32,050 nucleotides of DNA from Candidatus Aerophobetes bacterium Ae_b3b (GTDB taxonomy: Bacteria; Aerophobota; Aerophobia; Aerophobales; AE-B3A). Positions 1 to 3,870 of the stretch are shown here, in pieces. The stretch spans positions 1 through 32,050 of the forward strand of contig NJBP01000022.1 of NCBI GenBank assembly GCA_005223085.1, written 5' to 3'. Every line of letters begins with the position of its first letter. Position 1 is the first letter of the stretch. A program made the translations under genes and the position numbers. The notes beneath the pieces were generated by a model that did not search any database, was not told the origin of the DNA, and saw nothing but the letters and a program-made list of their open reading frames with translations.

Positions 1-58
1 TCTCCACTTCCCGGAGCTTGTTGATGATTCTCTCTGGCGTGTAGCTTCTTCTGGTCAT
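1..58 (-). CDS. IS3-like transposase OrfA, N-terminal fragment at window edge
   Basis: Reading leftwards from the ATG at 58, the frame gives MTRRSYTPERIINKLREVE and runs off the window edge. This is the typical opening of IS3-family OrfA proteins, whose first helices form a DNA-binding helix-turn-helix. A terminal inverted repeat lies 38 bases upstream (96-126), so this is the 5' end of the element. A degenerate copy of the same 5' end, including the start of the same protein, lies at 12530-12692. Whether the copy at this edge is intact cannot be told from 19 codons. Confidence 0.6.
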   Translation of the reverse strand, partial: MTRRSYTPERIINKLREVE

Positions 59-95
59 TTATATCCCCCCTTTTTTTGATCCCTAGTCTAACATA

Positions 96-410: not shown

Positions 411-1205
411 TTAGAAATCCTTTCCGTGAATCTGCCACTCATCTTGAAATCTGTATGGAGCAACTTCTCTTTCTAGGACTGAACAGATATTTGGCCAAAT
501 CGCGTTAGTAGCTTGGTTTAGGTTTCTCAAAAGTTTATTGGGATCTATGGTTTCATCGGCAGTACAGTATTTCAGTAAGGGAGAATACTTATGCTTTTCT
601 GGGTTAAGAAATTTATCCTCGTATATCTTGAGAATGCCCTCGTAGTCTAGCATGAATTTCCACATTTCCTTTCCTTCGCCTAACTGTCTTATTTTGTCAA
701 AGAAATACCTTTTCTTGCTTCGTCTTTTGGTAATGACTTTTATCATCTTTCCGTCTTCGTACGTATAGGTCACCTCTTCGTCCAAGTGTGTATTCCCATC
801 CAGCTTTTTATGGAATATAACAAAATATATTAGATTCAGGAGCCTTTCCCACAAGATACCAGTCTTTAGGACGATGCTTTGCTGCTGAGAATATAGGAGA
901 AATGATTTATCATTATAGTGCCTTGCATCTTCAAATTTGATGAACGGATACAATTTAATATCTAGTATGATTATATAGTACTCTAACTTTATTCCTACAG
1001 CCATAGCAAGTATTTTTTCTATCTCTCTCTTATCGAATTCTCTGCTACGTAGCAGAGCTTTATACAAGTTTTCCAGACTAAAGATTCCTAACCTTCTGAG
1101 ATCGGCCCTTTCAACCCTCTTGTACCTTGTGGGAGTTTGCCGAATATAGTCTAATTCAAATTTGATAAACTTGTTCTCGATCTCCGATACTTGTTTAAAA
1201 TGCAT
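411..1205 (-). CDS. Unrecognised 264-aa helical protein
   Basis: I do not recognise this protein. It has no signal peptide and is rich in Lys, Arg, Tyr and Phe. A hydrophobic segment near residues 118-132 (around LLNLIYFVIF) is flanked by predicted helices and could be a buried helix rather than a membrane span. Alternating long amphipathic helices leave open a HEPN-like fold, but I see no convincing RxxxxH active site. The start is supported by a GGAG sequence just upstream of ATG and by a near-consensus promoter at 1259-1286. It lies downstream of the Zot-like ATPase on the same strand, separated by 285 bases that contain an iteron array. Its neighbours suggest an element-borne accessory protein; no function is assigned. 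Confidence 0.6.
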   Translation of the reverse strand: MHFKQVSEIENKFIKFELDYIRQTPTRYKRVERADLRRLGIFSLENLYKALLRSREFDKREIEKILAMAVGIKLEYYIIILDIKLYPFIKFEDARHYNDKSFLLYSQQQSIVLKTGILWERLLNLIYFVIFHKKLDGNTHLDEEVTYTYEDGKMIKVITKRRSKKRYFFDKIRQLGEGKEMWKFMLDYEGILKIYEDKFLNPEKHKYSPLLKYCTADETIDPNKLLRNLNQATNAIWPNICSVLEREVAPYRFQDEWQIHGKDF

Positions 1206-1286: not shown

Positions 1287-1413
1287 ATTTTCGATGGGGA
1301 ATAGCAATAATGAATTCTGCTTTGTTTTCGAACTATTTTCAGCAGTTTTCTTGATATCTCCTAAGATGAAATGTGGAGAATGTCCATTGTTGCATTAAAT
1401 ATCAATTTAAAAT

Positions 1414-1465
1414 TTGGACACGGGGTGTCCAATCTGTGTCCAAGTACTGTCCAAGAAGCATCCAA
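1414..1465. repeat. Iteron array: TGTCCAA units at 11-bp spacing plus one inverted copy
   Basis: TGTCCAA occurs at 1426, 1437 and 1448, and a degenerate CATCCAA at 1459, all exactly 11 bases apart and so on the same face of the helix. An inverted copy, TTGGACA, starts at 1414; with the first direct unit it forms TTGGACAC-GGG-GTGTCCAA (1414-1432). Another inverted partial copy (CTGGACA) lies at 1476. The array sits between the ATPase stop codon and the promoter of the 264-aa gene. Such arrays are typical of replication origins of iteron plasmids or of multi-subunit repressor operators. No Rep protein is recognised nearby. Confidence 0.7.
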
Positions 1466-1490
1466 TTGGGCGGATCTGGACAGTAAAATG

Positions 1491-2849
1491 CTACATTTCA
1501 AGGACTTTTTGCTCATTTTTTCCTTGTGTGTCCAGACTCGGAAATTGTTGAAAAAAGAATCGTAATGCCTCATCTCGCTCTCGTTCATGTTGCTGGATCC
1601 AGTTCCAAACCGTTGACTTACTCACTCCTAGCTCAATGGCAATCTCTCTTACCGATTTTCCTTCCTCATGATGCTCCCATGCTAGCTTGATCTTTTCTGC
1701 TCTGGTGAGAGTTTTTGCTGCCCTTTTTAATCCAAGGTCAATTCCCGAAGCATAAGCCTTACTCAGCTTCTCATTCCAGTAGCTTGCCTTAGGAATAGGG
1801 ATCATCCCAGTGAACTGCGATGGGGAAAAGGCTACGTAACAGAAGCCTCTTTTGTCGTGCTCGATTTGGTTCAAGGCCCGGGCAGCTTTTTCGAGGAAAG
1901 CTCTTATCTCTGGTCTATCCATCTTTACTTGCAGAGGAGCAGGCTCTTTGATGATGAGCGTGTCGATGGATCTCAAAACATTTTTGTCAATGTAGGAGCT
2001 ATCCTGGGTTACGATAATAAGGGTGTGTCCTCTCTGTCGTGCCAGAACAATATCCGATAGAAGTTTTCGGTTCCGCAGGCTCATTGATTCCTTGGAAGAG
2101 AAAAGAAGGGGTCCTTCGTCTAAGAGAATAGTTGCCCCAGGAGGAGCTTCCCCAATCTCGGAAATAACCCCCACCCATTGAGGAAGTTCTTTCTGGGCCT
2201 GTCTCGGGAATCCTACTACATGACAAGCCCCTCGAAAACGGGTATACTCCAGCATCTTGTGTCCGGCACTACTTTTTCCCGATCCCCTTCTTCCGGTGAT
2301 CAAGTTGACTGAACCTGGTTTGAGAATCCTCAGCCAGTTATTTCCCGTCTGATCAATGTTATCTTTTCGGTCATGGTGTTGTTTAGCGAGTCCCACATCA
2401 GATTGGCCTACATTAAGTATCCGCTTCACCTCCTCTAGTGCCTGGCGAACTAGCTGTGCATTGCCTTCGTTTACAGACGGAGTAGGGAGTACAGGAGGCA
2501 GAGTTTCCGGGGATGAGGACACTGATCGATCCACTTGGGAAGTGCTTTCCGGCCCAGTAGCATTCCCTGTCCGGAAGTGGGCATCGCTCACAGTTGCCAC
2601 TTGCCAGAAAGAACAGGGTGCCTCAGCCTGCTTTTCCATTTCTATGAGCTTGGGGACTCCCCAAACGGCCAAGGGTGTGCTTATGCCTCCTGCCACTCCG
2701 GAAGCGATTACTCCCTTCACCGTAGGCTTCTCCTTCTTTGCGACTCTTACAATGGTGTAGAAGAGGGAAGTGACACCAAAACCCAAAAGTGCCTCGAGCC
2801 AATAGTTTGTCTTTGCCTGTTTTTTAGGATCCTTACCTTCTTTTTCCAT
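1491..2849 (-). CDS. Membrane-anchored Zot/HerA-like P-loop ATPase with C-terminal helix-turn-helix
   Basis: This 452-aa protein has two N-terminal hydrophobic segments (about residues 17-34 and 46-64), a low-complexity Ser/Pro/Thr linker (about 95-128), an ATPase core and a DNA-binding tail. The core shows a Walker A motif GRRGSGKS (186-193), a Walker B ILLDEG (241-246, D244-E245), and then LARQRGHTLIIVTQD (269-283) followed by YIDKN. That order, with a glutamine after the strand (Q282), resembles Zot/gpI-type filamentous-phage assembly ATPases and the wider HerA/FtsK packaging ATPases. Residues 397-420 form a helix-turn-helix (KSVREIAIELGVSKSTVWNW) of the kind found in transposases and sigma region 4. 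AGGAGG upstream of ATG supports the start. Membrane anchor plus ATPase plus HTH suggests DNA capture and translocation at the membrane; this role is inferred. Iterons lie just past its 3' end. Confidence 0.65.
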   Translation of the reverse strand: MEKEGKDPKKQAKTNYWLEALLGFGVTSLFYTIVRVAKKEKPTVKGVIASGVAGGISTPLAVWGVPKLIEMEKQAEAPCSFWQVATVSDAHFRTGNATGPESTSQVDRSVSSSPETLPPVLPTPSVNEGNAQLVRQALEEVKRILNVGQSDVGLAKQHHDRKDNIDQTGNNWLRILKPGSVNLITGRRGSGKSSAGHKMLEYTRFRGACHVVGFPRQAQKELPQWVGVISEIGEAPPGATILLDEGPLLFSSKESMSLRNRKLLSDIVLARQRGHTLIIVTQDSSYIDKNVLRSIDTLIIKEPAPLQVKMDRPEIRAFLEKAARALNQIEHDKRGFCYVAFSPSQFTGMIPIPKASYWNEKLSKAYASGIDLGLKRAAKTLTRAEKIKLAWEHHEEGKSVREIAIELGVSKSTVWNWIQQHERERDEALRFFFQQFPSLDTQGKNEQKVLEM

Positions 2850-3026
2850 GTTTTTACCTCCTAGTTAAGTGTTTGACTTCTTGGTCCTGGGATAGATTGA
2901 TTGTAGGACCTTTAATGATTATCTCTGGTTGGTTCGTATTATGGTGGGTCCGGGGAGCCAAATCACCACTAAGAAAACTTATTTTCCCCTTAAGTCAACC
3001 AGAGTAGAATTTTAGGTGGTCGCCGG

Positions 3027-3711: not shown

Positions 3712-3870
3712 GTGGTAATTAAAACCTTTAGCATAGAGAAAGAAAAATTAGAAACACTAAGAAAGCTATCAAAAGAAACAGGTCTCTCTCAAAGTTTATT
3801 AATTAAAATGACTATAGCTGAGCTAATTGAGGATAAAAAGAAGCTAAAGAAGAAATTATTTCCTCATTAA
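3712..3870 (+). CDS. Small ribbon-helix-helix (CopG/Arc-like) DNA-binding protein
   Basis: A 52-aa frame starts with GTG at 3712, eight bases after an AAAGGA ribosome binding site. The N-terminal VVIKTFSIEKEKLETLRKLS gives the beta strand (VIKTFSI) and first helix, ETGLSQ the turn, and SLLIKMTIAELIEDKKK the second helix, which is the layout of MetJ/Arc-type ribbon-helix-helix proteins. The C-terminus is Lys-rich. A strong promoter upstream and a terminator downstream make it a monocistronic unit. Proteins of this type act as dimers, often as repressors of plasmids, phages or toxin-antitoxin pairs. No toxin partner is visible next to it. Confidence 0.7.
   Translation: MVIKTFSIEKEKLETLRKLSKETGLSQSLLIKMTIAELIEDKKKLKKKLFPH

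What the first reader, a model, noticed from the sequence alone, without database searches (positions are those of the whole stretch)
1414..1482. Iterons phased at 11 bp between ATPase and 264-aa gene
TGTCCAA at 1426, 1437 and 1448 and CATCCAA at 1459 are exactly one helical turn apart, with inverted copies at 1414 and 1476. Such regularity is not expected by chance and points to cooperative protein binding: an origin of replication, a partition site or an operator.
Basis: seen in the sequence. Interest (0 to 1): 0.6.

Follow-up and report, generated by a model that had tools for sequence, protein, structure and literature searches.

The report
Phased binding-site array beside mobile-element ATPase
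Next to the gene of a probable DNA-pumping protein in an integrated mobile element of an uncultured bacterium lies a short row of near-identical protein-binding sites, one DNA turn apart, and the same row sits at the same place in two related bacteria, so it is very probably where the element's own machinery grips its DNA to move or copy it.

Summary
TGTCCAA stands at 1426, 1437 and 1448 and CATCCAA at 1459, with inverted copies at 1414 and 1476. It is the only exact heptamer triplet at any period of 8-40 bp in the window, and 0 of 2000 shuffles of the intergenic region reproduce it. A fourth copy lies elsewhere in this genome, near a broken serine-recombinase gene. All four lie 1.5-2.6 kb inside an att-like junction (A[TC]AATACGAACC); in three of them this follows tRNA 3'-end sequence. 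So the array belongs to a small family of integrative elements, not to the 264-aa gene, which is an orphan. Two mechanisms remain. One is a loading site for the adjacent membrane-anchored ATPase with a C-terminal HTH, laid out like Streptomyces TraB/TraA with clt. The other is an iteron replication origin: TTGGACA-N4 arrays occur in replication-initiator genes of lambdoid and streptococcal phages. I favour the first slightly. Binding is untested.

The parts
1414..1482 (-). The array: seven 7-bp sites of consensus TTGGACA. Read on the - strand (ATPase direction): two inverted sites, palindromic core, then direct repeats at 11-bp steps, then one inverted site.
   Evidence: same register (offsets 0, 10/11, 17, 28, 39, 50, 62) in the G004 locus, largely the same in G002, and truncated after offset 39 in C41
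1426..1465 (+). Four phased sites, 11-bp steps: TGTCCAA 1426, 1437, 1448; CATCCAA 1459
1414..1420 (-). Inverted flanking site (TTGGACA on +), hairpin partner of 1426-1432
1459..1472 (.). Palindromic core CATCCAATTGGGCG: junction of the phased repeats and the inverted sites
   Evidence: core CCA(A/T)TTGG present in all four loci
1476..1482 (-). Inverted flanking site CTGGACA on +
1393..1413 (.). A+T-rich stretch next to the array on the side away from att (25 bp at 88% A+T in the window); part of the conserved block in window and G004 (AAATTGATATTTAA)
1491..2849 (-). 452-aa protein: two N-terminal hydrophobic segments (about 18-36 and 47-65), P-loop ATPase resembling Zot/M13 gpI (FtsK-HerA class, weak), C-terminal HTH_23 (380-429)
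2850..2930 (-). Conserved leader upstream of the ATPase gene
   Evidence: about 0.76-0.85 identity to G004
2931..2942 (-). att-like junction motif ATAATACGAACC, shared with the other three array loci (one mismatch in G004)
411..1205 (-). 264-aa orphan ORF following the array; probably cargo, not part of the conserved unit

Best explanation
The array is the cis-acting loading site of a tRNA-associated integrative element of Aerophobota. The protein that most likely reads it is the element's own ATPase, encoded directly beside it. That protein is inferred to sit in the membrane by two N-terminal helices, to form a DNA-pumping ring of the FtsK-HerA class, and to carry a C-terminal HTH. Several copies would bind TTGGACA sites on one face of the helix (11-bp steps). 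The uniform orientation of the direct repeats would set the direction in which the excised element is pumped, so the array works like the clt site of Streptomyces TraB/TraA conjugation proteins. SHOWN: array, its phasing, its conservation beside the ATPase, fixed orientation relative to att, and the domain signatures. INFERRED: membrane location, ring, binding of the HTH to the sites, DNA transfer. A second element in the same genome that carries the array but not the ATPase (C41) would then be mobilised in trans.
For: (1) All three ATPase genes found (window, G004, G002) have the array 3' of the stop, 8 to about 70 bp away, in the same orientation; among 17 Aerophobota genomes the array occurs only in the three genomes that have the ATPase. 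(2) The array DNA is 84% (G004) and 80% (G002) identical to the window's against 64% for the coding sequence; conservation peaks at the att side and at the array and falls to background just beyond; site columns are more conserved than spacer columns (0.86 vs 0.60). (3) All four arrays lie 1.5-2.6 kb from an att-like junction that occurs, with tRNA 3'-end sequence in front, at three places in the phylum, all of them array loci; the window's junction carries the same 12-mer. (4) The layout matches pWTY27 TraA/clt: two N-terminal TM segments, and a clt that takes in 16 bp of the gene plus adjacent DNA, with four 7-bp direct repeats and inverted repeats (PMC3583192). (5) G002, whose ATPase HTH is the most diverged, has also lost base 1 of the heptamer in 6 of 8 sites, against 2 of 21 in the others; sites in one array are not independent, so this is a hint only.
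Against: No binding or transfer data. The C41 locus has the array without the ATPase. The ATPase assignment is weak (Zot Pfam E=1.9e-5; AlphaFold model mean pLDDT 54.6; no Foldseek match below E=0.001). The HTH is of the HTH_23 type, not a TraB winged helix. The heptamer and its spacing match iterons of phage replication origins, which this reading does not explain. Only three ATPase loci are known.
Confidence: 0.42

Rival explanations
1. The array is an iteron-type replication origin of phage kind. A winged-helix replication initiator (lambda O-like, DnaD-like or replisome organiser), supplied by a helper phage or by an unassembled part of the element, binds the 11-bp-phased TTGGACA iterons and opens the neighbouring A+T-rich DNA. 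The element would be a satellite or plasmid-like element that borrows a replication protein.
For: 115 of 120 are read through by an ORF, nearly all in initiator genes just after the winged-helix domain, in two large unrelated clusters (87 and 21 loci) and a few singletons. Nearest annotated phages are HK106, mEp234 (DNA replication protein O) and Streptococcus Javan phages. Some of these arrays also end in an inverted copy. An accidental control, the reversed heptamer, found 11-bp-phased DnaA-box arrays. A DnaD-like initiator with an 11-bp repeat in its own gene exists in another Aerophobota genome, G011. An A+T-rich stretch adjoins the array, most clearly in the window.
Against: No initiator lies near any of the four arrays, and none was found in G000, G002 or G004 with PF09681 or phrog_2514, though the bins are incomplete and three element copies run to or towards contig ends. 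The A+T-rich side is opposite in polarity to the phage arrays. Two scrambled heptamers gave 1 and 32 hits; the 32 are themselves 11-bp arrays, so many heptamers occur in such arrays and the match could be coincidence. The viral hits are dominated by one over-sampled enterobacterial gene.
Confidence: 0.35
2. The array is a partition or operator site: a dedicated DNA-binding protein (an RHH protein, the wHTH protein of C41, or an unknown one) binds the phased sites to segregate the element or to repress the gene 3' of the array.
For: Phased short repeats with inverted copies are typical of partition sites and some operators (general knowledge). In C41 the array lies 268 bp 5' of a wHTH-TM gene, in the window 5' of the 264-aa gene.
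Against: The gene 3' of the array differs at each locus and the 264-aa gene is an orphan. The RHH gene (3712-3870) lies outside the att-to-array unit. No ParA-like gene was seen.
Confidence: 0.13
3. The array acts as a folded nucleic acid: a terminator, mRNA 3' structure or single-strand packaging hairpin, in line with the Zot/gpI likeness of the ATPase.
For: Single-strand folds are more stable than shuffles (z -2.5 to -4.7).
Against: The stems pair different repeats in each locus, so no common structure is kept. Direct repeats at one helical turn are a double-strand protein-binding signature. No Rfam match here and no coat-protein genes nearby.
Confidence: 0.05

Closest known systems
[quoted passage not shown] PMC3583192, PMC5365140)
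   Same: Membrane-anchored P-loop ATPase with a C-terminal helix-turn-helix domain; non-coding array of 7-8-bp direct repeats plus inverted repeats at the 3' end of the gene.
   Different: Different ATPase branch (Zot/gpI-like rather than FtsK/TraB sequence family), HTH_23-type HTH, strict 11-bp phasing, non-actinobacterial host; transfer and binding not shown.
Iteron origins inside O-like / replisome-organiser genes of temperate phages (HK106, mEp234, Streptococcus Javan phages)
   Same: Same heptamer TTGGACA, same 11-bp step, 3 or more direct copies, sometimes an inverted copy at the end.
   Different: There the array is inside the initiator gene; here it is intergenic beside an ATPase and no initiator is found. 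The strict Aerophobota core pattern (palindrome plus direct repeats) has 0 exact hits in viral contigs.
ICEth1 with TdtA of Thermus thermophilus (PMC5365140)
   Same: tRNA-associated integrative element with an orphan FtsK-HerA-class ATPase.
   Different: TdtA has no detected DNA-binding domain; ICEth1 is 14.9 kb with 47-bp att repeats and a NurA nuclease; no phased array is described in the passages read.
PICMI minimal phage satellites (PMC10803314)
   Same: Small integrated element with a replication origin, if rival 1 is true.
   Different: PICMIs encode integrase, AlpA, primase and Fis-like genes; none of these except a broken serine recombinase in C41 was seen here.

Membership tests
TraB/clt-type conjugation module | P-loop ATPase with N-terminal membrane segments | tested here: inconclusive
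   P-loop GxRGSGKS present; two hydrophobic segments with Kyte-Doolittle 1.2-1.5, below the usual 1.6
TraB/clt-type conjugation module | ATPase belongs to the FtsK/TraB sequence family | tested here: not met
   Best Pfam match for the ATPase part is Zot (E=1.9e-5), no FtsK_SpoIIIE hit among the rows shown; weak structural likeness to STIV2 B204 and TcpA only
TraB/clt-type conjugation module | C-terminal helix-turn-helix DNA-binding domain | tested here: met
   HTH_23, E=2e-10, residues 380-429; an HTH, not the winged helix of TraB
TraB/clt-type conjugation module | Repeat array at the 3' end of the ATPase gene | tested here: met
   3 of 3 loci
TraB/clt-type conjugation module | The ATPase binds the repeats and transfers the DNA | not testable with these tools
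   needs gel shift and mating assay
Phage-type iteron replication origin | Three or more direct repeats at a constant helical step | tested here: met
Phage-type iteron replication origin | Cognate initiator gene containing or adjoining the array | tested here: not met
   none near the four arrays; PF09681 and phrog_2514 absent from G000, G002, G004; bins are incomplete
Phage-type iteron replication origin | A+T-rich unwinding region beside the iterons | tested here: inconclusive
   25 bp at 64-88% A+T beside the array, but on the opposite side from the phage arrays
Phage-type iteron replication origin | Supports autonomous replication | not testable with these tools
   needs a replication assay
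Filamentous phage (Inoviridae) provirus | Zot/gpI with coat and replication genes | tested here: not met
   Zot-like ATPase only; no coat or Rep genes within the flanks read
Serine-integrase integrative element | Large serine recombinase beside att | tested here: inconclusive
   present in C41 next to tRNA-Asn and the junction motif but interrupted by an in-frame stop; not seen in the ATPase loci, whose contigs end 0.2-10 kb past the array

The most novel reading that the evidence does not exclude
A single-protein DNA-transfer module outside Actinobacteria: a Zot/gpI-like membrane ATPase with its own DNA-reading HTH and a helically phased loading array at the end of its gene, carried by tRNA-associated integrative elements of the uncultured phylum Aerophobota, and able to mobilise a second element in the same genome that carries only the array.
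Probability: 0.27. Interest if true: 0.72.

Novelty: new variant of a known kind. Interest (0 to 1): 0.47.

Why it matters
If the ATPase reads the array, this would be a transfer system of the one-protein kind (dsDNA pump plus recognition repeats), known best from Streptomyces, built from a different ATPase branch and found in an uncultured phylum; it would tie Zot/gpI-like pumps to sequence-specific DNA loading. If instead the array is a borrowed phage origin, it identifies TTGGACA at an 11-bp step as an iteron code shared by initiator genes of phages of Gram-negative and Gram-positive hosts, used by initiator-less elements that would depend on such phages. A gel shift with two proteins separates the two.

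Tried and rejected
Operator for the 264-aa gene: rejected as the main reading, since the gene is an orphan and the genes 3' of the array differ between loci. RHH protein as conserved binder: outside the conserved unit. RNA or ssDNA structure: folds not shared between loci, no Rfam match. Filamentous prophage: only a Zot-like ATPase, no partner genes. Reversed heptamer as a neutral control for viral contigs: failed as a control because it is part of DnaA-box arrays; two scrambles used instead (1 and 32 hits), which weakened the argument from motif identity. TP901-1 as a characterised example of the TTGGACA origin: its rep gene has no such array. G043 array-like hit in an unrelated 9-Mb genome: two mismatches, TGTCCAC-rich region, not pursued. 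ATPase relatives in viral contigs, phages and plasmids: none. Intact tRNA from which the G002/G004 tRNA-like ends derive: not found. AlphaFold model from three sequences: too poor for a firm fold. Literature on the heptamer: nothing found.

Full report
OBSERVATION. Within 1206-1490 three exact heptamers at period 11 occur in 0 of 2000 dinucleotide shuffles, and in the whole window this is the only non-simple heptamer repeated three times at any constant period of 8-40 bp.

SURROUNDINGS. The window is a complete contig (C84) of an 88.6%-complete genome bin; homologues of the ATPase lie in Candidatus Aerophobetes MAGs. The ATPase gene (1491-2849, - strand) codes for 452 aa with two N-terminal hydrophobic segments, a P-loop region resembling Zot/M13 gpI and, weakly, the STIV B204 packaging ATPase, and a C-terminal HTH_23 domain. 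The array starts 8 bp after its stop codon. The 264-aa gene beyond it has no family and no relatives.

CONSERVATION. Of 98 genomes searched, 17 of them Aerophobota, only G004 and G002 (same family, other genera) have a clear ATPase homologue (45% and 35% identity), and both have the array 3' of it in the same orientation. A three-mismatch search of the 17 Aerophobota genomes finds the array at four places only: window, G004, G002 and a second locus in the window's own genome, C41. Pairwise array identity between window, G004 and G002 is 80-84%, against 64% for the coding sequence; along the window/G004 alignment, identity is high at the att side (0.76-0.85) and at the array (0.79-0.86) and near background elsewhere, including just past the array. 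Site columns are more conserved than spacers (0.86 vs 0.60 over four loci). The array is therefore under selection, and is tied to the ATPase unit rather than to what follows it.

THE ELEMENT. All four loci carry the 12-mer A[TC]AATACGAACC, 1.5-2.6 kb from the array, with the array always in the same orientation relative to it. In C41 the 12-mer follows an intact tRNA-Asn and a large serine recombinase gene that is broken by an in-frame stop; in G002 and G004 it follows a tRNA 3'-end-like fragment at exactly the same distance (43 bp from TTCGA to ACC). That composite pattern has only these three matches in 17 genomes. In the window the flank before the 12-mer differs. The simplest reading is an attachment junction of a family of tRNA-associated integrative elements. 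What lies past the array differs between loci: an orphan gene and a contig end in the window, a contig end in G002, and NHL-repeat, SIR2-like and DUF1670 genes in G004. Because contigs end, absence of further element genes is not established.

MECHANISM. Two readings fit. (A) Loading site for the ATPase. The layout (membrane-anchored pump, C-terminal HTH, short direct plus inverted repeats at the 3' end of its gene) is that of Streptomyces TraA/TraB with clt; in pWTY27 the clt has four 7-bp direct repeats and inverted repeats, and TraA has two TM segments (PMC3583192). It also explains why array and ATPase travel together, the fixed polarity, and possibly the joint divergence of HTH and site base 1 in G002 (three loci only). 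(B) Replication origin. The weight of this match is limited: the viral set is dominated by one over-sampled gene, and of two scrambled heptamers one gave 1 hit and the other 32, themselves 11-bp arrays. No initiator of the tested families is in the three genomes that carry the array. I put A at 0.42 and B at 0.35; both make it a loading site of a mobile element, which I hold at about 0.8.

WHAT IS SHOWN AND WHAT IS NOT. Shown: the array, its statistics, its conservation, the att-like motif, domain signatures. Inferred: binding protein, membrane ring, pumping or replication, mobility. The AlphaFold model (three sequences, mean pLDDT 54.6) and its Foldseek matches (none below E=0.001) are too weak to carry an argument.

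NOVELTY. No paper on this heptamer or on such elements in Aerophobota was found in the held library, which is not the whole literature. I file it as a new variant of a known kind (a mobile-element loading array), not as a member of the TraB/clt family, since the ATPase fails the FtsK/TraB sequence-family test, nor as a phage origin, since no cognate initiator was found.

Noticed in passing
viral contigs L024-L143: The same heptamer TTGGACA at an 11-bp step recurs inside replication-initiator genes of phages from Gram-negative and Gram-positive hosts, in at least two large unrelated clusters; other heptamers (TGACGAT, L251-L282) form similar 11-bp arrays, some with 7-bp extra copies.
   Followed up: partly
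L146-L247: Phage contigs carry DnaA-box arrays (CCACAGGTTAT) phased at exactly 11 bp.
   Followed up: no
L005:5793-7310, - strand: Large serine recombinase next to tRNA-Asn, interrupted by one in-frame stop codon near its N-terminus; beside it small Zn-ribbon and wHTH-TM genes.
   Followed up: partly
L019:2378-9159: Past the array in G004 lie a 1191-aa SIR2-like/DUF4020 protein and two DUF1670 genes, possibly a defence island.
   Followed up: no
window 1-60: The contig ends in what looks by eye like the start of an IS3-type transposase gene on the - strand (MTRRSYTPERIINKLREVE), a likely assembly break.
   Followed up: no
L249 (G011 C130): Aerophobota DnaD-like initiator whose gene contains an 11-bp repeat ACTGCTTTTTT just after the winged-helix domain.
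   Followed up: partly
L036:1600-1925 (viral contig): Two divergent TTGGACA arrays flank an A+T-rich, gene-free stretch upstream of an RHH gene and a large ORF: looks like a complete intergenic origin.
   Followed up: no
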